A stretch of DNA of 64,000 nt from Ectocarpus siliculosus. Lineage: Eukaryota; Sar; Phaeophyceae; Ectocarpales; Ectocarpaceae. The stretch lies in NCBI GenBank assembly GCA_000310025.1, contig FN649735.1, positions 1,327,283 to 1,391,282 of the forward strand, given 5' to 3'. The notes under the pieces were generated by a model. That model worked only from the letters and a program-made list of their open reading frames with translations. It ran no database searches and had not been told where the DNA came from. A program made the position numbers and the translations under genes. This document shows, one piece after another, positions 16,630-43,193 of this stretch; positions within the stretch are counted from its first letter, which is position 1, and every line of letters starts with the position of its first letter.

Positions 16630-17240
16630 AAGAAAAATCTGATGAAAATGCGCCGACGGACAGCAGAGTGTTCGCCCTTCTTTTTTTTTTTGTGCCAGTG
16701 CCCCGGGACGTTCTCTATCCGAAGTGGAATTTATCCTATATGGCACTGCTCTACCTAGCTCTCCTTGCCTGCACCTTTCTCTTCACAATATTTTTACTCT
16801 ACACTCCTTGCCGACTCCTTTGAGCCTCCTCACGGAGACGTGTCCTGAGCCTTTGCTGGCAAGCTAACGCATGCGCGTTAGAACTCCTCTTCTCGTACAA
16901 TTGTGTATGCATTTGGCTAGGAACCATGTCGCTGTTTTCGGCATCGCAGCTTTCGCGCACAGGCTGGCCAATTACATTACCAGGGTTAAAATTCGACATG
17001 GCATATTTCGCGCACGGGCTGCCCAATGACGGTACACTCCAGTCTCCAGCGGTAAAACATCCACAGCCATTCCTCCTGTCGTGCGTATGTGCCCATACCA
17101 CACTTCGGTGTCGCGTGTCCCTGTCTCTCTTTTCTCTTTTCCTATCGCATGTCGGTAGCCCTCCCCGCCCGCCGTCGCACAGAACCCCAAAAGAAGTCGC
17201 CGTGTGTGTCCTCTTCGCCGTCGAAAACGGTAACGCACAG

Positions 17241-20200
17241 GTGATCGAGACGCCCTGCTGGCCCTCTACCACTGCACGGGGGGCCCCTCTTGGCACAACA
17301 GATCAGGCTGGGGGTCGGACAGGCCGCTCAATGAGTGGTACGGCGTTACCACGAACTCGGCGGGAAGGGTCGTGGCGCTGGAGCTGAGGTACAACAACCT
17401 CCAGGGTGAGAGACAGGCGGAAGGATCTAGCACAAGGAAGTGTCCCCGTGCTCATTTTTGTCTTTTTGGTGGGCGAGGCCAGGGTTCACCTTTCCTCTGC
17501 ACGGCTCTAGCAACGGCCATCGCCTAGGGATTTGTGGTTGTTTTAGGAGTTTTTTTTTACCCGGGGATGACGAGCGCGCGTTGCCGGTGGTGTTCTAGGG
17601 GGACAGTAGCTTTCGCAGAGTTTTTCGTACTATTTACAAATGTAGGAGACAACATTACAATCGGGGAAGTTGGGTTACGGTCAGAGTTAGGGAATACGGT
17701 CTGCGTCCCCCTTCCCTGTTCTATTTCACCGTAAACTTGTTAATCGCGCGAAGGCGGCCCTAGGGGGAAGGTCGGCCTCAAACCAAGTTCTCTCGCGGTG
17801 TCGTTATTTTGGTAGCACGGGAGGCGCCTGACACCTAGACGGGGCAAACAAATGGTGGCACACGATGCAACAAGGAGCTTCGCAAGGAACCTTTGCACGA
17901 ACGGGATGGGGATTTGCCAGGTTTCCGGTTGCCTAGAATCAAACATGGCTCTGAGAATAAGACTCTTTGCGTGCTTCAATGGAGCGGGCGGCGGACGCCG
18001 TAGACGCCAATCACCGAGAATGCTGTCGCCGTTTCGACTGTTTTCATCTTTGCTCTGTAACACCGCTTTTTATGGAAGTACAATGTTGCAAGAAAACCTG
18101 CAAACTTTTCCTGCAAATTTTCTTCCAAACTTTTGTCAATGGAACTTTTGATGCACGCTCTTTATGGGACGAAGAGAGTTTTGTGCACGGGACTGGCGGA
18201 ATGCGGAGGCGTGATATATATATATATATATATTGGAAACGGTGAGAAGAAGGAAGGAGGCACGCGCCTTTCATATTGCACCGCGAAAGAACCGGTCAGA
18301 GCGTGCGGGAGAGGGTAGACGAAACCTTTTTTCTCCACACTTACGATACCCCAAGGCATCTAACCTGGTACCAGCAAGATGCTGGGTAGAGCTAGCTCCC
18401 TCGGGGTGGCATTGCTGTTGCTGTTGTTTTCTCCTTCGAAAACTTATCGCTGGAAAACCAAACCATGCGCACACACTCCCTGCGAACTTGAACCAACTGC
18501 TCTCTGACGTGGGTACTTTGGGGTCGATCAAAACGTTTTCCCGATGCGCACGATACCCCACGGCACCAAACCTTGGGCATGAAAGATGGAACAGAGAGCT
18601 ACCTCCCACCGAGCGACCTTGCTATTGCTGTTGCTTCCTCCTTCGGAAAGCTATCGGTGGATAACCAAACCCACCCGTGGCGGTCAACAACATCGAGCTT
18701 GAACTAACCGCTCGCGGCCGTTGACGGTTGTGCACAGCACAAACTTTTTTTCCTGGAGCATTCGGCATCTCACGACCCCGAACCTTGGCAGTGCCTAACA
18801 GCCCATGGCATCACCTCCTTCCAGATACCATTCATGAGGCAACTCGTTTGGTATTCGTCGAGATATCGGTGATCACAGCCTTCCCACAATCGATGCTGGA
18901 AAGGGTCTACGTGTGTGGTAGGGGTAGCACCTAGACGTGAACCGGTATACTAGAGTAGTTTCCGCCGTGCAGCTTTTCTCGCCCCTTCCCGACTCGGGAA
19001 AAGCTGCAAAACTTTTCGGCCAGATTGCAGCTTTTCGCTCCGGAAAAAAGTTGCAGAACTTTTCTTGCAACTTTTAGCTCCCATACTGAGCGTACATTAG
19101 CAAAGCTGCAAGAAATGTTGCAGAAATTCAGCTTTTTTTGCAGCATTGTGCTGCCATAAAGAGCGGTGTAAGTATGCACAAACCAGACGAGCAATCTTTC
19201 AGCTCCAAGACAAAATCTTCAACACATGATGGTCTGCTGTCTAATTGCTTGGGACAAATGCAGGTTCTATCCCACCGGGTCTGGGTGAGCTAGACGCCCT
19301 GGAGCATTTGCACCTGACCAACAACGAGCTCCACGGTAAGGGCAACCAACGCCGTTGTGATTGGCGTAGCCTCAACACCTCGAATCGCGTTCTCTCTCGG
19401 GAGTTTATTCCTTGCGAATTACGTACCTGCGTGGGTTTTTCAGATGGAATTATCACGCTGGTTTGGGTTATTGCCAACACCTGGTACCTTGTTGGCGTGT
19501 GTGTTTCCACTTGTACACAAAAAAGGTTTGGCGGGTGCATGGCTGCGATTCTAGCGCACGATTTGAACGCGCGCGGTGTGAACCTTTTGGAGCGCATAGA
19601 GCGAACCCTGGTTTGTGTAGCAGCCTACCTGCATCCACACTCCGTGGGCTCCGACTCCTTTCATCAACCAAAAAAAGACCTCAGGACGAGATTACCCACA
19701 GGGCAACAATGTCAACCAAAAAAGGCCTCGGGACGAGATTGCCCACAGGGCAACAATCTTCTTTTCTGTACCCAAAAACCGAACAGGACAAGAAGGGTGG
19801 CCTTGCAAGCGTTTTTTTCTTTACGCCGCAAGCTCAACGTGAAGTAGCGGTCTTGCATCCACACGAGTCTTGAGCGGTTGTTAATCACGTAGCGGTGCCT
19901 GCAATCGGCCAGTTTGTGAGCAAAGGACGCGGTACTTTAGATTTGACGAGCAATGTATAGTATATGTCGGTGCCTCCCGCGGCTTCAGCGTCAGCTCCAT
20001 AGAGCGACACGTATTTTGTGACCTCACAAACCGTGCGGCGCTTTAAGTTTCGTCAGCGATCGCGCGAAAACGGACCACCCCACGCACACACGTTCATTGA
20101 GAGGTAGTGGACCCTCTGCCCCCACACGCTGCGATTCGGTGGTCGGTGTGCGTATTCTTTCAGCGACCCAGCGTACAAGACAGCAACATTTCGCAGCATG

Positions 20201-22630
20201 GCGTCGTTCTACCCACAGCAGATCGTGTGGAAAATATGTGCCAGCAAGGCCGGCTCACCGCCGGCCACCACAACACAAGACTCACGCGAAGGCATACGCT
20301 CTTTCCGCTTTCCGTGTGCGTCTCCCGGTAATTTGCCGGACCTCCGTTCCCCTCCCTCAGGAGCCATCCCGCCCGAGCTTGGGCGACTCCACTCCCTTAC
20401 GGATCTTCGTCTGTACTGCAACCATCTCTCCGGTATGTTGGCCGAGCTGCCTCGTTCTTAGTTGTAGGTGACACGTTTGGAAGATAACATCTTACTTCTA
20501 GTTTTTTTTTTGTTGTTGTGTGTTGGGAAGGTGTCATTGCTTGCGCCCACCATGAAGATGATGCTGTCGGGAATAAGGCCAGCGCCTTGGAAATGTGTCT
20601 CCCCCTGTACGTTGGTCGGTTCAAGATGTTTCCATGGCCAGTGCGCCGAGACGACACCAACACGGGTCGACGCGCAGCAAGAGGCACAGAAAAGGGAAAA
20701 GGCGGGGGAATTTACATCTTGACAACGATACCGACTGAACATGTACCAACGCTGAGCGTTACAGGCATGCGAACAGTCTTTTGTAGTGAGCGATCACTGA
20801 AGGAATGTTTACTATCGAGGGTGGGTGTTGGGAGAGCTTCTAGAAGAACACCTTCGTAGGGCGTGGATTTTTCGATTTTTCGACGCTTTTCGACCGTTCA
20901 TGTTCTTCATCACCAAGATGGTATTATTCCAATGCACGTTTAATATCTAGCTTCGTCTAAGCTCTCTCTTCAGTTGGAACAGTCGTTCGGCCACTGCAGC
21001 ATTACACCAATGCTATGCAGTTCACGTTTCTTCTTGGGATGGATTCACCGTTGCACCTACTTGTAGGCAGCTTGGGTTTTTTTGACAAAAAGGGTACAGA
21101 TACACCGCAAAGACCGAACGCACGAACGTCTGCGACGGATGTTTGGCTACGTATGTTTTTTACCGAATGGTTGCGAACAACTTTTCAAGCGCTTTCCCAA
21201 GGGTTTCGAGTGATACTGCGTCTTGTCTTCGAGCGTCTCGGCTGTGTCTCAAGAAAGGAAGCTATTGACTTGTCGCTCGTGCGCATGGGCGTACCAGCGT
21301 ATCTTTCGTGAACTACAGTAGGAGGAGTTCGGCCCATGGATTGAGAACATTTTTTTTTTTTTTTTTGGGATGATACATGTACCAACCCCACCACCACCAA
21401 CAAAGCGCACGCATACATCTATCCTTTTTTCGCTTTCAGGCGGCATCCCGCCGGAGCTAGGAAATCTCCATGCTCTCAAGAAGCTAGTGGTCTACAGCAA
21501 CGACCTCTCCGGTGAGCCATCCAACCCCCCGCCCCTGTTTCCGACGTCGATGGCCTCCCCCATATCGTTCAGATGACTTAGACCGGTTAGGCGTACCGGT
21601 ATCAGGTTGTGCAGATATTAGGAGCTCTTTCATCCCCCCCCTTTTCGACAACACAATGCATGCGCCGCAAAAAGCGAAGTGCCCATTATTCTCTACGAAC
21701 CATACCGAACGCTTTCCGCTACTCGAGATTTGCGACCCCCCAACAAGCGTTCCAACCATTGCCTGCCTCACTCGAGGCGCACGGCGTACTCTTGCGTATG
21801 GACACCTGACGCAAATTTCGCAACTTAAGGGACGGTTCCGCCGGAGCTGGAGGGGCTACGGGCTCTGGAGGAGCTCCTTTTGTCGGACAACAAGTACCTC
21901 CTAGGTGCGTTAGCCTTTGGTTGACTTTTGTCTGCCTTTGGTTGGCTTTTGTCAGGCTGTGGTTGACTCTCGTTAGCCTCTGGTTGACTATCGCTAGCCT
22001 GCGGGTGACTGTTGTTAGCCTGTGGTTGACTCTCATTAGCCTGAGGTTGGCTTCCGTATCACACAAGGGGTTGTTTGGACTCCTCTCCGGGCGGGACCCT
22101 GATGGGGTACATGTGACGGCTTGGGTTCTTGTCGAGTCGTCGTACCGTTCGTCCTGCACAAGTACGGCATGCTTGCTGCTCGGGGTTGTCCACGTGGGGC
22201 CTTCGAACGGGCACGGAGAGCGTGCGGGTTGCATTGCCCCCTCCTGCCCTGCGTGCCTCGAACTGGAACTGGATGTGTGGTGCTGGCGGTTTCGAGAGTT
22301 GTGGCCGCTTTTCTCGCTCTACATGTATTATTGGGGTGTGAAGGACAGCACAAAACTCACCTTGTTTTGGCTCTTTTTTTCTGTTCCGGTGGTCATGTCG
22401 TGGTATGCAGCAGATCTTCCGTCGGCGTGCACCCGAAACTCCTCACAATCAGCGCTTTTCGCCTTTTTCTACTACACCCATAATTCCACCGCATTTACTC
22501 GAACTCGATCAATCAATCGATCGATCTCCACGCACGACCACTGCCCCCGCAGGCGACATCCCGCCGGGGCTGGACCGAAACCTCGCTCTGAACAGGCACA
22601 CGAAGCAGCTCCCCGCCGGCGTACTCGCGG
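17241..22630 (+). CDS. Leucine-rich-repeat gene with one LRR per exon
   Basis: Exon 17241-17405 is the N-terminal LRR cap: DRDALLALYHCTGG, then W..W.GV-type residues (NEWYGVTTN) and VVALELRYNNLQ. Then come LRR exons at 19264-19335, 20361-20432 and 21440-21511, each exactly 72 nt or 24 residues in the GxIPPxLGxLxxLxxLxLxxNxLxG pattern. Two more follow at 21830-21904 (75 nt) and 22553-22630 (78 nt, degenerate, matching only GDIPPGL). All borders are GT-AG and phase 1. Whole repeats can therefore be gained or lost without a frameshift. The pattern matches the plant-type LRRs of brown-algal LRR-GTPase (ROCO) genes. No start exon, GTPase domain or stop is visible, so this is either an unfinished gene model or an LRR exon remnant. 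Confidence 0.8.
17658..17762 (+). repeat. Family B dispersed repeat
   Basis: A second copy of the ATCGGGGAAGTTGGGTTA... GTTCTATTTC... ATCGCGCGAAGGCGG element. It lies in the first LRR intron. Confidence 0.65.
18058..19171. mobile_element. 1.1-kb element with long inverted terminal repeats
   Basis: The left end (18058-18120: ACACCGCTTTTTATGG, then CAATGTTGCAAGAAAA) is an inverted copy of the right end (19105-19171, whose reverse complement reads ACACCGCTCTTTATGG, then CAATGCTGCAAAAAAA). About 40 bp match with few differences, followed by a shared GCAAACTTTT-type region. Inside, a unit of about 205 bp is repeated two to three times (landmarks near 18345, 18550 and 18765). No transposase is seen, so this fits a non-autonomous DNA transposon. 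It lies in the first LRR intron. Confidence 0.55.
21909..22055. repeat. 21-bp minisatellite next to an LRR donor site
   Basis: Seven consecutive 21-bp units of the form GTTAGCCTGTGGTTGACTCTC with scattered substitutions. The array begins within the 5' splice region of the LRR exon ending at 21904. The period is a multiple of three, so one minus-strand frame reads as a seven-residue repeat; I do not think it is translated. Confidence 0.75.
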
Positions 22631-24050
22631 GTGAGGCGCGGCGCGCGTGGGATTGTGATGCCGAGACGGACCGCCTGTGCCGTGGACGCCGTCTTGCTTC
22701 TGGCACGTGTTGCTCGCCCCTTTCCCTCCGTCTCTTTCGTGTGCGTATCTCGCTGTGGCCCTGGACCGATGGCCCCAACGATCGTGCACAGCAGTAGCAC
22801 CGCTCCGAAGCTCCAAGTGCCCCCCCCCTCCTCAAGAAATAGCCGAGAGAGGATCGTTGATTGCCATCTAAATCTATCACGGCACGGTACTTGGAAGTTT
22901 TCGAGTGCGGCGGGGAGGGGTGACGAGAGGTAGTGAATTCGGCAGGGATGTCCTCGGAGGTGATGTAGGCGGAGGTAGCCCCTCTCACCAAGACTGGTTT
23001 GGAAGAGTAGATGTAGATAGTCCGATCGAGACACGGGCACATGTATTGCAGCATCCCTCAAAGCGTTCTAAGCCGGTCCGACAGAGAGTACTGCTGCCGT
23101 GCATCTGTAGGAAGAAACACGTGCCCCGTTGTCCCTCCCTTTCTTTGGATTTTGATGGCGCCTGCCACTGCTGCCGCTGCCGCTGCCGCTGCTTCTGATG
23201 CTCTAAAGGCATGTTTTCTCCGATTGGTAGCTCTCGCTGGGAGGACGCCACGCTGGAGGACGATTCGAAAACGATATTCTCTATCTTCTCCGTAGATGGC
23301 AACGAAGCAGTGACTCCTGCTGATTCTCGTGCCCCTTCAGCTGATCCTCCATTCGCTGGTGCTGGCGCTGCTGGTGCTACCGGTGGTGGTGGTGCTACTG
23401 AGAAACAGCGGGAGCGCCAAGGTTTTCGTCTATGTTATCTTGTCGTGGTTGAAATCATCTGGCACGGAGCGCCTTGGCACCTAATCCCTGTCTGGTGACG
23501 TTTTTCCTATTCTGTTCGAAGCACGGTGGTTCGGCGTGACTCCACCACGGATGAGCCATGATACAGTAGTCGCGCAATGGTCCATGCGGGCGTAACAGGG
23601 TGCACAGGAAGGGCACGGAGATCAATACCGCGTGGTTATGCAGAAGGGTCAAAAGTCAACCCATCCGTTTTGTTGTTCCGCTTGCCCCCCCCCCCCCCGC
23701 GTGTGATGCTTGAAGACCCTGAGCCCCTTGTAATCGCAGACCCTTTGCCCGTTGTAGTCGTTTGTCCACTTGAATTTCGAATCTTTGAGCGGGTTCGGTG
23801 CTCTCTCGTGGTGCCGCCGCAGTAAAGCGCCGTGCTACATATCCGCCCAGTTGAGCGCATGGTTTTCGGTCGAAAGGTCGACATTGCGTTGTGATTTTCT
23901 GCTTCGTCGGTCGGTCCCAGTCATCGAATTTATTCCCGATCGTACGTATTTATCGTGCCGTGTCTGCCTCCCTCGTGTACACCAGGGGGAAGGCGACGGA
24001 GGGAACGAGCCAGAGCCAATAAGCCCCGGGTGGCGAAAGTGTTAGATTCG
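22631..24050. other. Between LRR array and membrane gene
   Basis: No recognised exon follows the last LRR exon. A GCTGCC-type repeat lies at about 23163-23195. One 95-codon ORF (23211-23498), starting MFSPIGSSRWEDATLEDD with a Gly/Ala-rich middle, has an in-frame stop just upstream. It could be a short gene or a single exon, but nothing identifies it. Confidence 0.35.
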
Positions 24051-25734
24051 ATGGCAGAGGCGTGGCACGTCGTGGTGCCGATTGCCGACGACGCCACCAG
24101 CGTCTGGCTGCTGGTTAAGGTAGCGGCGGCGAGGATGGGCCCGCTGTGGTGGGTCAGCGCCGCCGCGCTGTCGGCGGCCGGCCTGGAGCGCGCGTGGCTC
24201 GTCCTCACGCTCTGCGCCGTGCTCGCCCTGATGCCGCTCCTAGGGATCGTTCGCGTCGTGCTGGCCGCGCTGGCGTGGTGCGCCAGGCTGTGCACGTTTC
24301 CCCCCGGCACCGTGTGCTGCCTCTGCGTTNNNNNNNNNNNNNNNNNNNNNNNNNNNNNNNNNNNNNNNNNNNNNNNNNNNNNNNNNNNNNNNNNNNNNNN
24401 NNNNNNNNNNNNNNNNNNNNNNNNNNNNNNNNNNNNNNNNNNNNNNNNNNNNNNNNNNNNNNNNNNNNNNNNNNNNNNNNNNNNNNNNNNNNNNNNNNNN
24501 CCGCCGCAACGAAGTCGATTTACCGCCGCGATATTTTTCCTGGACGCGGTGTTGTGGGCCTTGGTCGGGGCTAGGGCCCGGTGCAGCCCTTTCTGGCGAG
24601 GGATGGGGTTGAGCCTGGACTTGTCACTGGGCCAAGAAGAAGGAGGCGATGGTGGCAGTGGTGGGGAAAAGGCGGCCGGAGATTTCGGGGCAGTAATCGA
24701 TTCGTGGGTGAGTTGTCACCCGTTCAGCTGGCTGGGCAACTGCGTCTTTGGCAGGGTTCGTCCGTCGGACTCGGATTGCGCGCGTCGCGGGTGTTGCTGC
24801 GCGGGGCGGCGCAACCTCGCGGAGGGGACGAGGAACAACGGTAGCAACATAGCCGCCACCTCCGACAGTGACAACAAGAACACCGCTACCACCGGCCCTA
24901 CCATCAACGGTAGCAGCAGCAGCAGCAGCAGCGAGCAAGAGGACCCCGCGATTTCGACCGAGAGGCGACGACGAGCTCGTGTCATGGTACGCTCGGTCGG
25001 GGAGACCCTGGTGGTCGACCCCCTGTTCTTGGCGCTTTCCGCGGTGTCGAGGGGCGGCTGGGACGGTAGCCTCGCGGGCATAGCCGGAATCTCCGCGGTG
25101 TTCTCCGCGCTGCAGCTGCTGACGGAGCTGCGATACTACGTCAAGGGAGCCAGCGCGGTCCTGGAACCGGTCCCTGTTGTTCTCGTTGTTGATGATGATG
25201 ATGATGATGATGATGACGGTGGTGGAGGTGGACGTACCCTGTCGAGGGACGAAGAGAACCAACACAGCAGCGTGTGGTCCGGGTCTGACCACAGCGGGTC
25301 TAGCTCTGATGATGATAGCGGGAGCTCGAGTTCGAGCTTGAGTTCGTGTTCGATCTCTGATGGACGGAGCCTAGAGACTGCTTCCGAACGGGTTGCAAGT
25401 GAGTGTTGATGACGACGGCCTCGCGCGAGGAATGTACAGAGTTGTTGGGATGCATCCGCTTCGACGACGATGGTGGGTATGTGCGGCCCTTGATTGTGCC
25501 ACCACAGGAGAAACAAGTTTTTCTCGCCCGCGGTACAGAATGTTGGCCGCTCAGCAGTTGGCTCGAGCGGAGAAAACCTGGTGGATGGAACATCTGCGCT
25601 ATCAGATCGTCGGGAGTGGTGCCATGGCCTCGAGCAACGTTAATTTACGAGGTTTGGTCTTCGATGAGGAGGGGGGGGGGTATGGAGGAGGACCTAGAGT
25701 AGGCATTAGAAGCAGGTTAGGGCAGTCTCGATGA
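24051..25734 (+). CDS. Multi-pass membrane protein, hypothetical
   Basis: Exon 1 is 24051-25398 and ends in a strong GTGAGT donor in phase 1. Exon 2 is 25508-25734, follows CCACCACAG, and ends in TGA. The product is about 524 residues including the gap. Without splicing the frame would stop at 25407. The N-terminal part has about three hydrophobic segments (SVWLLVKVAA, LWWVSAAALSAAG, LVLTLCAVLALMPLLG). After the 171-N gap come AAIFFLDAVLWALVG, a Cys-rich loop, a Ser/Asn-rich linker, and another membrane region around GIAGISAVFSALQLL. A poly-Asp run and a Ser/Asp-rich segment follow, then the basic C-terminus encoded by exon 2. The reading frame is the same on both sides of the gap. An in-frame ATG at 23955 is an alternative start. 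I do not recognise the family. Confidence 0.65.
24330..24500. other. Assembly gap (171 N) within a coding exon
   Basis: The run is 171 bases, a multiple of three, and the flanking frames agree across it. This suggests the gap length is close to the true one, unlike the 100-N placeholders elsewhere. Confidence 0.9.
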
Positions 25735-28032: not shown

Positions 28033-28165
28033 TGGCGACGGTGGCGACTGTTGCGACCGTGATAGCCGTGGTGAGTGTGGCGATTGTGGCGACTGTGGCG
28101 ACTGTTGCGACCGTGATAGCCGTGGTGAGTGTGGCGACTGTGGCGACTGTGGCGACTGTGGCCGC
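28033..28165. repeat. 9-bp GTGGCGACT array, left arm only
   Basis: Units of GTGGCGACT and variants are organised in two near-identical blocks of about 57 bp. The right arm has only one or two such units at the matching place (about 37300), so the array expanded after the duplication. It changes the C-terminus of the left copy to a Ser/Pro/Gln repeat. Confidence 0.7.
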
Positions 28166-28324
28166 GGTATCGCTGACGGGTCGAACCTTGTGAAGACGGC
28201 GAAGGGTCCGAACGCTAGCACTCCGGTTAGCACCTTGTTGGGTCGTTTGTGGCGGTGGTGATGGTGCCAGAAGGTGTTTGAGATTTTCGGCATGCACTGT
28301 ATTCAAAAGAGGACATACATTCGT

Positions 28325-29467
28325 TTGTTTGTGTGAGAGATAGAATGCATAGTGTTAAGGAGTGTGGCTGCTAGCTTGAATAGGGTACATCTTATTGTTG
28401 ATAGGATGTGGGTCGGTCCCAGGAGGTATACCCTTCTTCAGACCCGTACCCTCTTAGAAATAAATGTCTAGTCTGTGTACCCCCTGAGGTGAAGTTGGAT
28501 CCCCACTTCACCTCAGACCCTTGCTGATCGTCTCTCAGCAATAACAAGCAACTTTCCCATCTCAACGTGGTCGTGGACAAGCGTGTCAACGACAGAACCT
28601 ACCTTCATCTATCTCTAGGAGCAAGCTACCGCCCACGGCTTCACCTCCTTTAAAATAGGTATATAGAAGAAATTGAACAAGTTGTAGGGCGGACAACCGT
28701 ACCCTAAGTGACATACGGTATCACACACCCTGGATCGTTTTTCAAAACTCGATTTCTCCACAGCAGAAAACGTGGCAGCACCGAAAACGGCGGACGCCGT
28801 CTCATAGAGGTCTTCATTTATGCTTCCTCTTTGCCGTGAAGTAATCGAGTGTTGAAAATTGGTCCAGGGGGTGCGGTGACTTGTGTCACCTACGGTATTT
28901 TCATCGAGCGGGTCACTTGGAGCCGTCGCCGCCCCTTCTGAAACAAGTTGGCCCTGTATCGTGGCGCGAGGTGTCCATGAAGGGGTTTGGCTTGTCGCAC
29001 CTCCGATCAAAACATGCATCAAAAGTATGGGATGATGTTGATGAAGAAACATCACGTGATACAGTAGCAGAAATAAGCTATATCCAACAACGACAAGTAG
29101 GCGCTATCGGGCATGAAAGCTTGGAAGGGCTTGGCTTGTCACGCGTCCACCGTACACGCAATCGGGACGTTGCGTGTTGTTCGTTCTTCTTGCAATTCGA
29201 ATAGGCATTGTGCCTGTCTATTCATGGCAGGCCGAAGCTACATAGCTCGGTTTGTTGTCGCGCCTCGCGTACATGGTCCAATGTATATACCCGGATGGAT
29301 GCGGAATGTGATGAGAGGATGACATCAGGCCTTGCTTCCAACCCTGACATGCCACGACTAGCTCTCGACCATGCAACCGTTTCCCCACCCACACTCCTCA
29401 GACTCGTGCCTACCTACCTAAACCACGTGTTGCAAACCCCACCCATCGTCCAGAGGTAGAATGTGAA
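28325..29467. mobile_element. 1.1-kb insertion in the left arm
   Basis: The sequence is absent from the right arm, where homology jumps from about 36992 to 37117. It contains a perfect 12-bp hairpin at 28484-28516 (CTGAGGTGAAGT, 9-nt loop, inverse). A segment near 28835-28900 resembles 51650-51715 (CCTCTTT, GTAATCGAG, then ATCTACGG-like). No ORF product is recognised. A transposable element is inferred from presence/absence and from the related copy elsewhere. Confidence 0.45.
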
Positions 29468-31645
29468 GGAAAGCTGGGGGCGTGTGATACGATCCACTTT
29501 TTTCCCCTGTGAACGATGGTTGAACGTGAAAAATAATGAACCTACGCAAATTTTTGGGTGTGGCTCACGCGTACATAAATGCTGAAGGGGATGATCGCAG
29601 TCGCCCGCCCGGTCGCCGTGTAGGTAAAAGTGATTGCCGAGGAAGCGTTCGCCCCGGCAAGTACGAAGTAGCCCGCAATCTGCTTAAGGATCCCGGCCTT
29701 CGTCTTGTCATAGAAAACCTTTGCCGACTGAGACGATGACTGCATTGTTTGCACGAAGGGGGCAGATGAGAATACGAATACCAACGTCGGGGGGCGCGAT
29801 ATGCGTAGCGTGATGAGTGCATGCAGAACGCACAAAGAATAGACCTCAAAATGACAGCGTTATGACCGATAAAACACAGCGCCCTCTCGATATGCAGTAC
29901 CATACCGCAGTGATCCAGCTTCCTTGAGGAAGAGCGTACAGCAAACGGGGGTCGCGTGAGCTGTGGCCGCAGCTACAGAGCATGGTCAGACCAAAGAATG
30001 AACAAAATCCATGCCTTGCAGCCGGCAAGTGGTCACACTATGTATTTCGTCCATCGACTAGATTACCGGTACATCCTCTGCCTCAAATAGACAAATTCGT
30101 GGTGATGCTCATTGTCGGCGCGCTCTACCCACTATTTCCAGAGCATCCACGCACAAGAACCTGGGCACGGCTCACCTTAGCCCGGGCGTCGTCGATGCAG
30201 CCAACAATTTGATGTGCCACTAGGTCCGTAAGCCCAACCTTTGGGTCCCAGAAAATCCCACCGAGAGAACGAGCAAAGGGGGCAAGTATGATGGACGACA
30301 CATGTGCGTTTTTTTCTCATCGTCCAGTTTATTTCTTTGTGCAGTATCATTCGTTTCTCTCCAATGCAGCCGCTCTGCGAAGTAGAGTTGGGATACACGG
30401 GAGGCTTTCTCGCCTCGAGGCCAAACCCCGGCCATCCTTCCGTATCACACGCCCCTCCCCTACTTCCCTACGCGCGCTCGCTCTCGTCGTGATCTAACCC
30501 CCTAGTCCTACCGACGACGATGACGACGACAACCCGTTGGTGGAGCGGTGAATGGAAGCAATTTTTGTCGGCTCTGCTTGCGGAAGGTTGCCTACGCCAC
30601 TCACCGTTGAAGCCGCCCCCACGACAGCGATGGTATCGACAGCATGAAACGGCCACTCCGCGCCACCGAAAGAGAACGAGCCAATCAAGGAGATGCCGAC
30701 CAGGAGCCCCATGCTGAGCGCTTGGACGGCTTTGAACTTGCCTGCTAGGACCTTTGCCTTCGCCAGAAAGCTGTGGTCGGGAAGCAGCTGCAGAATCGCG
30801 GGGGGTGGGGGCGTAGGTGGGGCTAAACGGCAGTTCGCCTTTTTGTAGCGGGCATTTTGTCGTTCTCGGCGGCGATGTACTACATATTTTCGTTCCCGAC
30901 AGACCAATGGCAGAGATATTCATCCAGGAGGGATGTTTTCGAAAGGGAGCGCCACTCCTACGCCGAGCGGATGCAACTCTCACAACGTTCAAGACCGAGG
31001 CGGGCAAAGGGGAGCAATGTTGTGGTGCATTGTGGCTACACTTTGCTACGATCAGCTTGAGGTCTCGGTTCACCAAAGGTGATTCCGACAGAAGGCCGCT
31101 TGAAAAGGTCGAGCAACCGCGTGCGGGGCGCTCCTGTTTGAGAAAGGCGTGTATGCTGATTGATGGACAACATATCCAAGCAACGTGATAAACAAGGTTT
31201 CCGCAGCCGCCGCATATGGTCGTGAACGGTGCACCAAATCGAAGTAAGGCGACGTCGAACAGAATGCACCCAAGGCAAAGAAAGCCAGTCTGTTTTCCAT
31301 ATGGCTTGCTCGCTCACATGCATCGGTAAGCTCTGCGCCCAGAAGTCCACGACAATCGGGATCCCGAACATCAGAACCGGGAGAAACACGGAATAGCTTG
31401 TTTGCAGAACGTATAGCTCCGGGAGTGAACGGTTACGCCCATCGCTGTCGCCAAGGAGAAGTTGCAAGCCATTTCTGTGGCAAAGAAGCTTCGGTGGCAA
31501 TGGCGACATAGAGCGCATAGTTTTGGGGTGGTGGACCACAAGGGGCAGAGGGCGAGTGCGATTCTGAAAGGCCGATTCTGAAAGGCCTTTCTCTATCGTA
31601 TGCATATGAACTTCATCTCTGCTGGTCGACGGGTATTACTGTACA

Positions 31646-31755
31646 AGTGTGTGTGCTCGTCGCATCTATTCTGGCGCCGGTTTACAGGCCTCTCAGCGTA
31701 GATACCCGACGTATCAGCCAGGGTCACACAAGAGGAAGGTCACACAGGAGCATTC
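31646..31755 (+). repeat. Family A dispersed repeat
   Basis: A near-complete copy: TGTGTGTGCTCGTCGCATC, TCTGGCGCCGGTTTACAGG, then AAGAGGAAGGTCACAC. It lies between two exons of the left-arm gene. I find no counterpart in the right arm between 33235 and 33662, so it inserted after the duplication. Confidence 0.65.
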
Positions 31756-32942
31756 GTGTTTGTTTAGTTTTTATTGCCCCATCTTTCCCCCTGCGGTACA
31801 AGTAGAGGTGTTTTTATCTCTTCTTACCCTAGTCGAAAATATAACAGGAGGGGGCTGTCCAACAGGGCCGTCTCTTTTTGGACGGCCCAAAAACGACGAA
31901 AAGTACTACCCAAGGAAGTGGTTCTTTGGGTCACACAAGGAACAGCGGAAACTTATTATAGATTACTGACGGCAGAGTCTACATAGTCTGCACCTCTATA
32001 TTCCGCGTAACACACGTCGGCCGTTCTCGTAGACCTACTCGACCTCTATCACCTTGGGGCGGAGGGGCCGATGCTTCACCCTGTTGAGTTGTTTAGTTAC
32101 AGAGTAGTACGCATAGTGTCCCGGCAAACAATGCAATCATTAGACTACGTTGCTGACCAACGTGCGTTCCTAAAGTTCTCATTCTCAATATGAACTTGCA
32201 CGCGCACCTGCCACAGAGCAGCACCCGAAAGCGCATGACGGCTGATCTGGACCTCCGATGAAGTCTCGAAAGCTGGCGAAACTTGTTCGCATGCCACAGG
32301 AGCCAGATCGCGGTGAGGACAGAAATGGCAGTGATTGTGGCGTACGCCGTGACAAGAACGGACCTCGGGGCACACGACGAACGGCCCATCGAGTCTCTCG
32401 ACACATATCCCGAGTCACACAAGCATGTGTTAGCTCAGGAGACGGTTGTGCACGCCCCGTTTCCACCCCACAGCGGATGTCGGCACCCGCTGACGCAAGC
32501 TGTCATTAACAAGTACTTCGTACTAGCGGTTCTGCGCCAAGCTTGTCCTCAACTTATGTAGCTTGACTGGGGGCGCGGTGCTCTCGGAACCTTTGCTGTT
32601 GTCTCACACAGTCACGAAACAAACACATCTCAATTACACTAGTTTTTACCTGCAGGTTTTTTTCGAAGTAGGAAAAGAAAGACTGGGAGATCTACATGCA
32701 TGTTGGGCACTTCTGTAGACGGCGCATTTACTACATGTAGGAAAGATGTACCCGTTCGAGTATATTTTGCCGGTTACAGTTTTTTTGGCATGATGCGGCG
32801 CAATTACCCGCTCGTTTTGGCGCGGCCGTCCCGTACAGTATGCATACAGCAGTACATCGTACAGATTTACCCACGCCGCCAAGACATGTTCGTAACAAGT
32901 GGAGGAGGTCCCAAGCTATACGCAGTACTTGCTAAATGACAG

Positions 32943-35900
32943 CTTGCGTCAGCGGGTGCCGACATCCGCTGTGGGGTGGAAACGGGGAGTGCACAACCGT
33001 CTCCGGGGCTAGCACGTGCTTGTGTGACTCGGGATATGCATCGAGAGACTCGATGGGCCGTTCGTCGTGTGTCCCGAGGTCCGTTCTTGTCACGGCGTAC
33101 GCCACAATCGCTGTTACTTCTTTCTTCACCTCGATATTTCTCCTGTGGCATGCGAACAAGTTTCGTCAACTTTCGAGACTTCATCGGAGCACCAGATCGG
33201 CCCTCATGCGCTTTCGGGTGCTGCTCTGTGGCAGGTACTCGCACATTTGTATTGGAATGAAAGCTTGAAGTACTATATACGGGGGTTTAACAATGTAAAC
33301 ACCTGTCGAGCCACGATCTCGGTTCGTTGCCGGTGTACGAAATCGTCGCCCAGCCGCAGATAGGAATCCATCGATAGTTTCCATCAATAGTTTTGACAAG
33401 GCTGGGGTTCTTCGGCCCATGGGTTAAGCTACCAATGGCAGCTAGCTTACGCAATTAGTTCCATTGTTAGGCTCGAGTTCTTATACTCCGATAAATTTAT
33501 AAATAATGTCGAGATTAAAATTCTTGGCTGCCAAGTTCTTGAGCGGGGACGCAAACGGTAGAGAAAAACCTCTCAAGAGCACATCCATTCGCTGGTTGAC
33601 CCTTCTCGTCCATCGCCCCCTACTGTGCTGTCGCCATTTGTACCGAAGCTTCTTTGCCGTAGGAATGGCGTGCAACTTCTCCCTGGCAACGGCAATGGGC
33701 GGTAGCCGTTCGCTGCCGGAATTGTACGTTTTACAAACGAACTATGCGGTGTTTCTCCCGGTTCTGATGTTCGGGATCCCGATTATCGTGGACTTCTGGG
33801 TGCAGAGCCTGCCGATGCATGTGAGCGACCAAGCCCTTAGTCTACACTATACTTCTGGACATGAAACACAATGTATCTGCCAGTCGCTGCGTTGGTGTGC
33901 TCTGTTCGCCGCTTGCATACTTCGTTGCACCATTCACTGCCTTGCGTGGTGGTATAACTTCGGATAGCGCTTAGGCAAAGCGGAAGTTGGGTTCCTCGTC
34001 ACTTGGGTGAGCAAAAGAGTCCAGATAACCGCGCGCTTGTAGGTTGCGCGTGTCGAAGCTGATGGACCGATTGATGCCCCCTTTCCCAGTGGAGCTGCGT
34101 AAGATGTGTCGATGGTGTCGGTGCTAGGCTTGAATACGCGGCCTTCATGTATCAGCTCATCGCCTGCTCATCATGCGCTTCCTGCGTGTGCCACGCCCGT
34201 GGGATACCTGCGGCTACAGTGGCGACTCGTGAACCATCGTGATCGCTCATGATTTGTACGGTACGCGAGGTGTTCCTGGGATGCACCGCCCACGGCGGTT
34301 GCTCATGATAGGCCGTAGGGTGCTCATGGGACGACGGTATATCTTGGGTTGCCATGCGTGGGAGCGCCCAAGGCTGTCGTGGAGGCTCATAGGTTGGAGC
34401 TTGGTGTCGAAGGATCCCCCGATGGCCCATAAGTCACGAAAGGACGCCTCGTGGGCTCGGATGCGTCGCGATATTAACCGGAACGACTCCCGATGTGATC
34501 GTTAAGATTCGGATAAACCGCTTACGTGTCGTCCGCTAGGAGACGTCGGTCCTCACTGGCAGCGCATAGACCGCCGTTGACAAGCTCACGGCGACCCTAG
34601 AGTGGCCCGCTCAAGCATACACATGCCGCCAACGACGGCTCACGGCAACAGATCGGCCGTCACTAGTAAATAGTCCATATGCAAGTTGCGGGGCTCCATG
34701 GGATTCATCATTTGCGTGGTAAAACGCCTCATCAATATTAGTGAGACCCGTAAGGCAGCCCGTGAGCCGTCCGATGGCTCATGAGCCGCCCGATGGCCCA
34801 TGGGCCGCTGGTGAGCGAATGAGCCGCCGCCCGTGGCCCCATATGGGCTTCGATGACAGTCCATGAGCCGTCTCATGGGTTGAGAACTCAAGACACCCCC
34901 TCATGTCCTACGTCCGCCACAGGCCGTCTGCTCCTTGATGGTAGTCCATATGACGTCGCGCGCACGCTCTATCGAAATAACCCATGCTGACAAACCTCGC
35001 TGTGGCTCCCTTGTGGAGGGTGTGTACAAGGCTGATTACCTACCTAGTCGTGCTTCAGCATGGATACCTCTTCTCACAGGGGAGGAGTGGCTATCAGGCG
35101 GCTACTCGACCTGTCCAGGCAGGCTTTCTGTCGAATCACCTTTGACTGCCGTGACCTCTTTTTTTCTCAACAAACAAAATCATGCTGTCCCCCTTCCCCC
35201 GCCTAGGCCCTCGAGAATGGTGCCAGTCGCATCACACTTGGCGTACATTGTAGGAGTGACGCTCCGTTTTGCAAAGATGTGGCGAAACATCTTACCACAT
35301 GGTATGTTTGTCGCGAAAGAAAAGAGAAGTCAATCGCCGCCGAGAACGACAAAATGCCCGCTACAAAAAGTCTAACCACCGCTAAGCCCCACTTCATCTC
35401 CCCCCCCCGCGCGCGGTCTGCAGCTGCTTCCCAACCACAGCTTTCTGGCGAAGGCAAAGGTCCTGGCAGACAAGTTCAATGTCTTCCAGGCGCTCAGCAT
35501 GGGGCTCCTGGTCAGCATCTCCGTGGTTGGCTCGTTCTCTTTCAGTGGCGCGAAGTGGCCGTTTCAAGCCGTTGACACTATCATTGTCCTCGGTGCGGTC
35601 ACAACGGTGAGAGCCGTAGCCAACCGATCAGAGCCGCCGAAATGATGTTTCGTTCACCACCCCGTCAACGAGTTGTCGTCGTCGTCGTTGTCGTTAGGAC
35701 TTGTAGATCACGACGGGAGCGAGCGCGCGTAGAGAGGTAGGGGAGGGGCGTGTGATATGGAAGGATGGCCGGGGTTCGGTCTCGAGGCGAGAAAGTCTCC
35801 GGTGCATCATAGCTCTGCTTCGCAGAGCGGCTGCATTGGAGAGAAACGAATGATACTGTACAGAAATTATGCAGGATGATGCATGAACAAGGAGCGCGTC

Positions 35901-37545
35901 GTTCGCCGTGCGTGCCCGCTTTGCTCGTTTGGTCGGTGGGAACTTCTGGAACCCAAAGGTTGGGCTTACAGGCGTCTTGGCACACCAAATTATTGGCTGC
36001 ATCGACGACGCCCGGGCGAAGGTGAGCCGTGCCCAGGTTCTTGCGCGGGGGTGTTCTGGAAATAGTGGGTAGAGCGCGGCGACAATGGGCATCACCATGA
36101 ATTTGTCTGCGCGATGCTCGTGTTCTTGCGTGATCCGTGGCCAACCAAGGGCTACTGCAGAGGGCTTTGGGCTAGACGTGGTTGTCGCGCATCACGGTTT
36201 GTCCTCATTCTTGTCCCAGCCTCTTCTTCAACAGTGCTTTTCGAACGACAGAAGCACGAAGCTCCAAGAACAGAGGTACTCAGATTGATTCGATCCCAAT
36301 TTCGAACGGATGGGCAGAGATAGAGTTCTTGTTTGAGTGGATGAGAGAGCGAGCGAAGGAGAAAGAGAGAGTGAGAGTAAACAATTTGGGGCAGAGAATG
36401 TACCGGTAATCCAGCCGATGGGCGTTTTACATAGTGTGCCCACTGCCGGCTGCATCGCATGGATTTTGTTCATTATCTGGTCAGACCGTGCTCTGTAGCT
36501 GTGGTCATGGCTCACGCGACCCCCGTTTGTTGTGCGCTCTTCCTCAAGGAAGCTGGATCACTGCGGTATGGTACCGCATATCGAGAGAGCGCTGCCATAA
36601 CGCTGTCGTTTTGAGGTCTGTTCTTTGTGCGTTCTGCATGCACTCATCACGCTACGCATATCGCGCCCCCCGACGTTGGTATTCGTATCCTCATCTGCCC
36701 CCTTCGTGCAAACAATGCAGTCATCGTCTCAGTCGGCAAAGGTTTTCTATGACAAGACGAAGGCCGGGATCCTTAAGCAGATTGCGGGCTACTTCGTACT
36801 TGCCGGGGCGAACGCTTCCTCGGCAATCGCTTTCACCTACACGGCGACCGGGCGGGCGACTGCGATCATCCCCTTCAGCATTTATGTACGCGTGAGCCAC
36901 ACCCAAAAATTTGCGTAGGTTCATTATTTTTCACGTTCAACCATCGTTCACAGGGGAAAAAAGTGGATCGTATCACACGCCCCCAGCTTTCCTATTCGGG
37001 GCGAGCTTGTTTCCATGGGGGCGGGAGGTTCGGTCTTGGAATGCCGCCGACAGTACGAAAAGCACGTCCTACATACATGGACACATCGCCTGAGTGAAGC
37101 ACTTCGAACAAACAAGCCAGTGTCCTCTTCGACGTTAAATTCATTGTGCGTTGTAGTCTCAAACCTCCCCTGGAACCATCACCACCGTCGTCGTAAACGA
37201 CTCAACAAGGTGCTAACCGGAGTGCTAGCGTTCGGACCCTTCGCCGTCTTCACAAGGTTCGGCCCGTCAGCGACACGGCGGCCACCGCCGTCACCCTCGC
37301 CACAGTCGCCACTGGAGGAGGCGCGGCGGGAGGAGAAGGAGACGAGAACCGACGACCGCCCGCTTTTCCAAAGAGCGACCTCCGGAGTGTCGTCGCTGTT
37401 CAGTCGGGTGTTGAAGGTCGTGGAGAGCGGCGAGGCGGTTGTGGTGGTGACATGCGAGGATACAGGGACTCAAGGATCGAGAAACGAATACGACCCCGTG
37501 GGGGGGGGGACCTCCCAAACCAAAGGAATAGGGAAAGGTCCGTGA
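32943..37545 (+). pseudogene. EGF-like multi-TM protein gene, right copy, broken
   Basis: Exons: 32943-33234 has EGF-like cysteines (CVSGC, GECTT, TCLCDSGY, SSCVP), then the TM segment VLVTAYATIAVTSFFTSIFL. 33663-33820 follows. 35424-35606 includes ALSMGLLVSISVVGSFSF. An exon ending about 36025 includes GVLAHQIIGCIDDARAK. 36721-36885 and 37210-37545 join to give a TM segment across the border (IIPFSIY/VLTGVLAFGPF). The second exon is 158 nt against 157 in the left copy. The extra G at about 33697-33701 brings an in-frame TAG at 33703-33705. No start exon exists upstream, because the arm begins at the EGF acceptor. A 1.1-kb insertion splits the middle of the gene. Confidence 0.65.
33945..35020. 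mobile_element. 1.1-kb insertion in the right arm
   Basis: Homology to the left arm stops near 33945 and resumes near 35025. The inserted segment has repeated GATGGCCCATGGGCCGC and CATGAGCCG-like motifs on both strands (34140-34920). No ORF is recognised. It lies within coding or intron sequence of the right-copy gene. Confidence 0.45.
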
Positions 37546-41264: not shown

Positions 41265-43193
41265 TCAAACCGCCACGGTCACAGGAAAACCGGCACTAGC
41301 AACAGCTGGAGCGCTCCCCGATGCTCGTCCATCGCCACCATCACCCCGGACGCGGTCTTGACTCGACCCTCTTCTCGCCGCCGCCACCTCTTGCTTCTGC
41401 CTCTCGGCGAGGCGAAAGTAGCTGACGGCCAGGAAGGCCACGCCCGACACAACGACGCACGCCGCCCCCATCCCGAAGAACGCCTTCGCGAGGGTTGGCT
41501 TGCTGTTGTCGACGGTTTCGCGGCTCGACGCACCCGGCGAAGACGACGAGGACGAGGCGGCGGGATCGTCCTGCTCCCCTCCTAGCGAAGGGTCGCTGCT
41601 CTCCGTTGCGTTGTACGGTGGAGGTGATGGTGATGGCGGCGCGGTGTTGCTGTCAGACGCAAAAAACACCGCCTCCTCCTCCTCCTCCACCGTCTCCTCC
41701 GGCGGGGAGCAGCGGTCCTTTGCTAGGAGGGGAGCCATNNNNNNNNNNNNNNNNNNNNNNNNNNNNNNNNNNNNNNNNNNNNNNNNNNNNNNNNNNNNNN
41801 NNNNNNNNNNNNNNNNNNNNNNNNNNNNNNNNNNNNNNCTCCTCCTCCTCCTCCTCCTCCTCCTCCTCCCCTTCCTCCTGCTCCTCCTCCTGCTCCTCCT
41901 CCTCCTCCTCCTCCGAGTAGGGAGAGGGAGTAGCAGCCGGGGCGTCCGGATCCAAACACTCCGAAAAATCCCCGTCCTCAGAGCAGCAGTCTCCCCCGTC
42001 GTAGCTGTTGCAGGCGCAAGATCGTTGTGGCAACGGGTTCGTGTGCGTACAGCGGGGGGAACAAAAATGGACGCATGTGCACAGCGTCGGAGGCGCCCGT
42101 GGTCGACGACGGCGGTTTGTTGTCGTGGTCGCCTACCGTGGTGGTCGTTGTTGAGCTGCGAGGTCTTCGTCGTCGCGTGCTCGATATCGCCGATCCAACC
42201 AGCAAATGCACCATTACATTCTGCCCGTGTTTTGAGTCGTACACACTGCCTGCACTACTGTACCAGGGGGGGAAATATCACAAGACAGTCCGGGTACGAC
42301 CGCGCCTCAACAAAAAAGAACCTTGCTCGTGAGGCGTACCTGCACTCCGCGCTATTGTTCACGTCGTCGCATTCGCCGTCGCCGATCCACTGCTCGACGC
42401 AATCCGACAGGCGCGACGCGCTGCTTTCGTCGCTGGCGGAGGCGGCTCTGCCGGAAGAGGAGTAACGTTGTTGCGCGTCGTCGGCAACGTCGCTGCCGCC
42501 GTCCTCGTGTTCTTCACCAACGCAAGCCGCGGCGGGGTCGACGCAGTTGAAGTACGAAGGGGGAGAGGCGCTCGCCAAACCGTTGCCGGAAGCTGCGGTC
42601 GCCGTGCAGGAGCAGCAATCGCCGCCGTCATACCTGTATTTGAAGCGAGTAAAGACCTTCGATGATGCAGCTCCTACCCCACATTGCGTGATGTTGCAGG
42701 GTGTTGGACCGTTGGCGACCGAAACGGATGCGTTCATCATGGGATGGTGCTACTCCTGAGCCTCACAGATATGGCCCGTATCCTACATCTCTCTCTGCTG
42801 CTGCTGCTGCTCTGCTGCTACCAGTGGTGCTACTGCGTGTTTTCGACAACGTTCCACTCTACCGCACCATCGTACGTACCCACAATACGCGTTGTTGTTC
42901 ATGTCGTCGCATGCACCGTTTGCGACATAGGCCGTCTCGCCAGGGCACACGTATTCCTCTGAAGAAGCGCCGTTTACGGTGTTGCTGCCGGTGTTGCTGT
43001 TTCTTCTGCCGTCGGCGCTGGTTAGGTCACGAGGGCCCCTGACTGGCCCAGTTCGAACCCTTGGGGAGACGCTCTCCGCGAGAATCGCGGTAGGAGAAGC
43101 CGCCGAAGCAGTGGCGGTCGCGAGGAGGATCGCTCCTACCCATCTTGGGCGTCGTCGTCGACGTCGTCGTCGTCGTTGCAACTCCATCACCAT
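41265..43193 (-). CDS. Notch/LNR-repeat type I membrane protein
   Basis: Exon 1 begins at 43193 (an alternative ATG is at 43187) and ends at 42880. Exon 2 is 42633-42340 and exon 3 is 42004-41265. Both introns interrupt an LNR module just before its YDGGDCC core. The N-terminus MVMELQRRRRRRRRR followed by WVGAILLATATASAA fits a signal peptide. LNR 1 runs CPGETAYVANGACDDMNNNAYC + GYDGGDCC. LNR 2 runs CVEQWIGDGECDDVNNSAEC + SYDGGDCC. These are the Cys and Asp/Asn calcium-site residues of Lin-12/Notch repeats. A long acidic poly-Glu linker (containing a 100-N gap) leads to one TM helix (AACVVVSGVAFLAVSYF) and a short cytoplasmic tail ending in TAA/TGA-type stop at 41265. LNR modules usually bind calcium. 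The ligand and role are unknown, and nothing else of Notch is present. Confidence 0.85.
41739..41838. other. Assembly gap (100 N) in an acidic repeat
   Basis: The gap lies within a CTC/GAG trinucleotide array coding for poly-Glu. Frames on the two sides disagree if the gap is taken as 100 bases. An intact protein would need a true length of 2 modulo 3. Confidence 0.9.

What the first reader, a model, noticed from the sequence alone, without database searches (positions are those of the whole stretch)
17241..22630. LRR array where each repeat is a phase-1 cassette exon
Five LRR exons and an N-cap exon are spaced by introns of 0.3-1.9 kb. Three LRR exons are exactly 72 nt, with both borders in phase 1. 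This is the arrangement that allows repeat shuffling without frameshift. It is known for brown-algal LRR-GTPase (ROCO) loci, proposed as pathogen receptors. Here no GTPase or stop follows, so the locus may be an exon reservoir, a truncated receptor or a soluble LRR protein.
Basis: partly seen in the sequence, partly recalled or inferred. Interest (0 to 1): 0.75.

Follow-up and report, generated by a model that had tools for sequence, protein, structure and literature searches.

The report
Worn-out LRR exon-cassette receptor locus
The window holds a quiet, apparently headless and tailless member of an algal-type gene family that encodes each leucine-rich repeat in its own interchangeable exon, while sister loci in the same genome carry such exons packed in both orientations, which makes an old question about shuffled algal receptors directly testable.

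Summary
The observation largely holds. An N-cap exon (17241-17405) and LRR exons at 19264, 20361, 21440 (72 nt) and 21830 (75 nt) are open, in one frame, with GT/AG borders in phase 1. The fifth "LRR exon" (22553-22630) is half a cassette: acceptor and first 21 nt match, the rest does not. No ROC GTPase was found in the window. In 46 of 69 sister N-caps an ATG lies within five codons upstream (40 at codon -4); here TAA stands at -4, and the joined product has no methionine. I read it as a sparse, probably decaying member of the known brown-algal LRR(-ROCO) cassette family, with no sign of recent shuffling.

Five dense sister arrays, picked for mixed strands, differ strikingly. Of 88 cassettes, 38 lie antisense, and 36 of these keep open frame and splice sites. 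They sit in 250-290-nt units, up to 99% identical in either orientation. Two junction patterns (29 matches; 12 matches at 10 sites) occur only at LRR-cassette loci. That resembles a shufflon or a lamprey VLR locus. I found no description in the papers I could read; Zambounis 2012 is not held.

The parts
17231..17233 (+). TAA at codon -4, where 40 of 69 sister N-cap exons have their ATG
17241..17405 (+). N-cap (LRR N-terminal) exon, 165 nt, ends in phase 1
   Evidence: N-cap profile E 1.3e-25
19264..19335 (+). LRR cassette exon 1, 72 nt, phase 1-1
   Evidence: LRR profile E 5.8e-9
20361..20432 (+). LRR cassette exon 2, 72 nt, phase 1-1
   Evidence: LRR profile E 1.8e-9
21440..21511 (+). LRR cassette exon 3, 72 nt, phase 1-1
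   Evidence: LRR profile E 4.2e-7
21830..21904 (+). LRR cassette exon 4, 75 nt (one extra codon), AAG acceptor, phase 1-1
   Evidence: LRR profile E 1.5e-7
22553..22630 (+). Half-decayed cassette, 78 nt: acceptor and first 21 nt cassette-like, remainder not an LRR
   Evidence: 4.2 bits; DNA match of 37 nt (86%) ending at 22573; apart from the window itself only two matches, E 0.85 and 0.91, both resting mainly on exon 5
22795..22797 (+). TAG stop met if the exon-6 donor is not used

Best explanation
The locus is a sparse, quiet and probably decaying member of the brown-algal LRR(-ROCO) cassette family. It once encoded an LRR protein, probably intracellular: an N-cap followed by 24-residue repeats, each in its own phase-1 exon, so that whole repeats can be gained or lost without a frameshift. 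It has lost, or never had, the ROC-COR GTPase part; the ATG normally found just before the N-cap is absent; and its last cassette is half decayed. Shown: exons, phases, homology, no ROC found in the window, absence of the usual ATG. Inferred: that these losses make it non-functional, that the organism is a brown alga, and that the family senses ligands with the concave face of the LRR arc.
For: Exons and phase. Homology: 69 further N-cap exons and profiles. No ROC: best window hit E 0.81, against 1.5e-12 to 1.1e-71 for 16 ROC exon pieces of the nine sister loci from which the profile was built. ATG within five codons in 46 of 69 sister N-caps, TAA here; no methionine in the joined product; 6.2 kb upstream gave 22 ATG-to-phase-1-donor candidates, none like the family's start and none with independent support (listed; a stricter scan over 4 kb gave none). 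Exon 6 half decayed. Decay is common in the family: 6 of 69 sister N-caps hold an in-frame stop, and L086 shows an N-cap with no LRR hit in the following 8.7 kb. No antisense cassette and no extended junction motif in the window; BLAST matches to the arrays lie only at exons and their borders.
Against: N-cap plus four LRR exons (152 codons) have no stop (chance about 0.002 at local base composition; the frame was chosen after the fact), splice borders are canonical, and the three 72-nt cassettes keep all ten scored consensus positions (score 13 of 13) although no other cassette in hand is more than 71% identical to them. That argues for constraint until recently. The N-cap tree places the window with members that lack the ATG, with weak support (98/32); if right, an upstream exon may supply the start.
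Confidence: 0.6

Rival explanations
1. It is a working LRR-only gene. An unrecognised upstream exon supplies the start, spliced to the AG before 17241 in phase 1, and exon 6 reads through to the TAG at 22795 or is joined to an unrecognised last exon, giving a small LRR protein.
For: Open frame, canonical borders and intact LRR consensus. By eye, N-caps L063, L065, L071, L062 and L066 have an AG placed so that the exon would start in phase 1. For up to 56 of 70 N-caps no ROC was detected downstream, so LRR-only loci may be common here; Teng 2024 reports 15 sequences with such exons outside ROCO genes in S. japonica, most with LRR only.
Against: No supported start exon within 6.2 kb, no methionine in the product and half-decayed exon 6, AAG acceptor and extra codon in exon 5.
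Confidence: 0.3
2. It is an active reservoir whose cassettes are copied or moved into other receptor loci.
For: Some family loci do share units. Teng 2024 proposes LRR-only sequences as a reservoir.
Against: The window's 72-nt cassettes are at most 71% identical to 131 other cassettes, its introns match no array, and it lacks the extended junction motif.
Confidence: 0.06
3. It is a chance run of open frames with splice-like borders.
For: None beyond the doubtful sixth exon.
Against: Profile E-values 1e-7 to 1e-25 at the predicted exons and nowhere else in the window.
Confidence: 0.01

Closest known systems
Brown-algal LRR-ROCO GTPase genes (Teng et al. 2024, PMC11378527: abstract, section 9 part 1 of 2, sections 11 and 15, and term passages seen; Zambounis et al. 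2012: not held, known here only through citing papers)
   Same: 72-nt exons, nucleotides 3-71 coding 23 residues (the paper says phase 2; I take it to be the border called phase 1 here); same LRR consensus; N-cap exon shared with ROC-bearing loci of this genome.
   Different: No ROC found, no family-type ATG, introns of 0.3-1.9 kb, one 75-nt and one half-decayed cassette.
Sequences with 72-bp LRR exons outside ROCO genes in S. japonica (15 reported, most LRR only; PMC11378527, section 15)
   Same: LRR exons without GTPase.
   Different: Here the ATG is missing and no shared units are seen; those sequences were not compared.
Tetrahymena 90-bp LRR exon arrays (PMC6564038, passages seen)
   Same: One exon length, one intron phase, LRR genes.
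   Different: 90 bp and phase 2; that the origin is independent is my assumption.
Lamprey VLR loci (PMC3308329, passages seen), compared with the sister arrays, not with the window
   Same: LRR cassettes lie forward or reverse relative to the receptor gene.
   Different: VLR cassettes are templates copied into an incomplete gene and are not rearranged; the algal-type cassettes are exons with their own splice sites downstream of the N-cap, joined at partly palindromic junctions.

Membership tests
Brown-algal LRR-ROCO | 72-nt phase-1 LRR exons | tested here: met
   3 of 4 sound cassettes are 72 nt, the fourth 75 nt; phase-1 borders
Brown-algal LRR-ROCO | N-cap exon of the type found in ROC-bearing loci | tested here: met
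   Profile E 1.3e-25; at least 14 of 70 such N-caps have a ROC-like place downstream
Brown-algal LRR-ROCO | ROC GTPase domain downstream | tested here: not met
   Own-genome ROC profile, best window E 0.81; no match on contig C10 among those listed
Brown-algal LRR-ROCO | COR domain | tested here: inconclusive
   PF16095 finds one place in the whole genome; the profile found COR in only 18 of 111 algal genes in PMC11378527
Brown-algal LRR-ROCO | Source organism is a brown alga | not tested
LRR-only 72-nt exon loci (proposed reservoir) | LRR exons without other domains | tested here: met
   No ROC; Pfam shows only LRR families in the product
LRR-only 72-nt exon loci (proposed reservoir) | Exchange of cassettes with other loci | tested here: not met
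   Best identity 71% among 131 cassettes; no shared intron with the arrays; only fetched loci were compared
Shufflon- or VLR-like cassette array (window locus) | Cassettes in both orientations | tested here: not met
   4 sense and 0 antisense hits in the window
Shufflon- or VLR-like cassette array (sister loci L095-L099) | Cassettes in both orientations | tested here: met
   50 sense and 38 antisense; loci were chosen for this
Shufflon- or VLR-like cassette array (sister loci L095-L099) | Ongoing or programmed rearrangement | not testable with these tools
   One assembly only; no reads

The most novel reading that the evidence does not exclude
In this genome the living members of the family are invertible exon-cassette arrays: 250-290-nt units, each holding one LRR exon with its splice sites, joined at partly palindromic junctions (core AYG|CRT) of types seen only at LRR-cassette loci, flipped and exchanged between loci by recombination, so that only cassettes in sense orientation are spliced into the receptor. 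This would be a eukaryotic shufflon for immune-type receptors. The window's locus would be a burnt-out array.
Probability: 0.4. Interest if true: 0.88.

Novelty: new member of a known kind. Interest (0 to 1): 0.5.

Why it matters
The window's own locus adds little: a sparse, likely non-functional member of a published family. What it led to matters more. That brown algae diversify receptors by somatic DNA rearrangement has been proposed (Zambounis 2012, as cited in PMC11378527), while Teng 2024 states there that no recombinant ROCO loci and no site-specific recombinases have been reported. Intact cassettes in both orientations, joined at recognisable junctions, turn that question into a simple read-level test.

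Tried and rejected
Plant-type LRR receptor kinase: the listed PDB hits are mostly plant LRR ectodomains (60 of 197 shown), but Pfam found no kinase in the 18 window frames or peptides that I chose to scan (not every frame). The GC-rich frame at 24052-25407 has its own ATG and was not joined to the LRR gene. The N-terminal domain found before the N-cap in L006, L007 and L010 was sought in the window and not found. A weak similarity by eye between exon 6 and the linker before ROC was not pursued. The best-palindrome scan over whole intervals gave only a modest excess (8.1 against 7.35 of 12; the mean includes one run of N). Unit ends lie near the AYGCRT core in 40 of 105 cases, against 12.7% of random positions; four control patterns gave 0.01, 0.01, 0.06 and 0.18. 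The extended junction motif is uneven: 14, 6, 4, 3 and 0 matches in L097, L095, L099, L098 and L096, and 10 and 7 in the sparse loci L087 and L088, 0 in L086, L089, L090 (one site may be counted twice). The scan for bacterial promoters and terminators does not apply to this organism. The first exon table was one base off and was redone. The counts held overlapping loci twice and were corrected.
Full report
Profiles made from sister loci find the N-cap and the first four LRR exons and nothing else significant in the window on either strand. The 78-nt exon gives 4.2 bits against 29.6 to 39.4 for the others; at the DNA level only its acceptor and first 21 nt clearly resemble cassettes (several weaker matches reach about 13 nt further). 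So there are four sound LRR exons and one half-decayed one.

Is the phase rule real? Distinct 72-nt AG/GT units with an LRR pattern were counted in each phase in loci L002-L090: 47 in phase 1, 3 in phase 0, none in phase 2; with L091-L099 added, 117, 3 and 1; in the window 3, 0 and 0. This is the published cassette: Teng et al. 2024 (PMC11378527; abstract, section 9 part 1, sections 11 and 15, and term passages seen) describe 72-bp exons whose nucleotides 3-71 code 23 residues.

The family in this genome. The N-cap exon has 70 matches including the window's; all 70 were read. Of the 69 others, 46 have an ATG within five codons upstream, 40 of them at codon -4, typically a MAST- or MAQT-like start, so the N-cap is normally the first coding exon; 6 hold an in-frame stop. 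At codon -4 the window has TAA, and the joined product contains no methionine. An AG precedes 17241 in a position that would allow a phase-1 acceptor, as by eye in a few sister genes, but the 22 candidate start exons in 6.2 kb upstream include none with independent support. The N-cap tree puts the window among members that lack the ATG, with weak support (98/32; three of the 70 rows were left out).

GTPase. A ROC profile from nine ROC-bearing loci of the same genome finds 16 exon pieces of its source loci at 1.5e-12 to 1.1e-71, by construction, and nothing in the window (best E 0.81). Combining the ROC places, 13 of 70 N-caps have one within 15 kb downstream on the same strand, and the number is the same at 30 kb. 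Those searches missed at least one: my profile finds ROC (E 7e-6) about 5.8 kb into L090, downstream of its N-cap, which makes 14. Several matches are weak and diverged ROC exons will be missed, so 56 without ROC is an upper bound.

Reading of the window locus. The missing ATG, absent GTPase, half-decayed last cassette, extra codon and AAG acceptor of exon 5, and long introns speak for a decaying fragment. The open frame (chance about 0.002 for 152 codons) and intact LRR consensus speak for constraint until recently. I give 0.6 to a decaying member and 0.3 to a working LRR-only gene with unrecognised ends. No RNA data were available to decide.

Is it being shuffled? I see no sign in the window. 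It has four sense and no antisense cassettes. No listed repeat of 60 nt or more pairs two places of the locus; one 76-nt stretch of the first intron recurs at 8501 (78%). Its 72-nt cassettes reach at most 71% identity among 131 other cassettes. It matches five dense arrays only at exons and their borders. The extended junction motif is absent from the 64 kb, where by my own arithmetic about one match is expected by chance, so this last point is weak.

Where shuffling is visible. A composite LRR query gave 140 matches (150 of 580 candidates scored), with several loci showing matches on both strands. I read ten longer loci from the N-cap downstream. Five were chosen because one search showed both strands (L095-L099), so they are a biased sample; the other five (L086-L090) were chosen before that for N-cap similarity or cluster membership. 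In L095-L099, 88 cassettes were found: 50 sense (47 with AG/GT borders intact) and 38 antisense (36 intact). In L086-L090, 21 sense (20 intact) and 6 antisense (none intact); L086 has none. In the 29 loci (24 of 3 kb and L086-L090, some overlapping), 55 sense and 14 antisense hits remain after removing doubles, 48 and 6 of them with both borders.

Units and junctions. Of 155 BLAST pieces of at least 100 nt and 80% identity among the five arrays, 83 are direct and 72 inverted; within one locus 21 and 22. Typical units are 250-290 nt with one cassette, up to 99% identical (for example L097 3108-3393 and 1459-1174). Neighbouring units meet at partly palindromic junctions, often with core AYG|CRT; of 79 intervals three score 12 of 12, but one of these is a run of N, so two are true (L097 3386, L099 1343). 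Unit ends lie within 15 nt of the core in 40 of 105 cases against 12.7% of random positions; most ends are thus not explained by the core. A 17-nt junction pattern has 29 matches in 189 Mb; an 18-nt one has 12, at 10 sites, as two palindromic sites are read on both strands; the reversed controls have none. Both patterns were taken from the arrays; the point is that all 29 and all 12 lie within 15 kb of an N-cap or 3 kb of an LRR match. The 34 matches of one 286-nt unit also lie there, but the unit contains an LRR exon, so that is partly trivial; the longest ones, 187-286 nt with flanks, are spread over contigs C4, C5, C15, C26, C234, C476 and C477.

Variation. Among 82 unit pairs of at least 90% identity (54 units), mismatches gather at codons 14, 16, 18 and 19 of the repeat, and at the second base of codon 13. 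For the four codons, first and second positions differ at 0.29 (sense-sense), 0.20 (sense-antisense) and 0.25 (antisense-antisense, 6 pairs), flanks at 0.045-0.056, the rest of the exon at 0.023-0.025. These codon numbers equal the four sites that Teng 2024 reports as positively selected. That antisense copies show the same pattern and a low rate in the rest of the exon suggests that they spent time in sense orientation. The pairs are not independent, and at about 5% divergence intact antisense exons alone would not prove function.

How it may work. Best-supported for the arrays: cassettes change place and direction by recombination, and the spliceosome takes only those in sense. Whether this happens in the germline or the soma, and whether the junctions are recombinase sites, cruciform-prone palindromes or simply ends of a duplication unit, is not shown; an assembly error in such repeats is not excluded. 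Lamprey VLR loci have LRR cassettes in either direction too, but use them as templates (PMC3308329, passages).

Is it in print? The listings of searches show no title or abstract opening that describes inverted cassettes or junction motifs, and a term search in Teng 2024 gives no occurrence of antisense, orientation, palindrom or reverse strand. A 2014 review (PMC4104024, passages) says that Zambounis 2012 found the exons also in noncoding regions; that paper is not held, so priority is open.

Noticed in passing
L095-L099 (G000 C4:4683300-4692400, C26:5004900-5013700, C4:2030900-2039400, C477:53400-61400, C15:4037500-4043300): Dense arrays with LRR exon cassettes on both strands (50 sense, 38 antisense), in 250-290-nt units joined at partly palindromic junctions.
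   Followed up: partly
window 28131-37312: Large imperfect inverted duplication (ten of the 11 inverted-repeat pairs, 83-99% complementary) with two head-to-head copies of a membrane-protein-like frame.
   Followed up: no
L006, L007, L010 upstream of the N-cap: N-cap preceded in the same open frame by a shared domain of very roughly 170 residues (weak Pfam match Rho_N, E 0.034, in L006): a second architecture of the LRR family.
   Followed up: partly
L086 (G000 C10:2585700-2594700): N-cap with ATG and no LRR hit in the following 8.7 kb.
   Followed up: no
window 42258-42749, minus strand: Cysteine-rich frame with a weak Notch/LNR match (E 0.09, below Pfam's cut-off).
   Followed up: no
window 52759-54167, minus strand: WD40-like exons (Pfam WD40 E 5.5e-4, below cut-off), BUB3- or Rae1-like by eye only.
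   Followed up: no
window 24052-25407, plus strand: GC-rich, membrane-protein-like frame with its own ATG, interrupted by an N gap at about 24330-24500; no Pfam family over cut-off.
   Followed up: no
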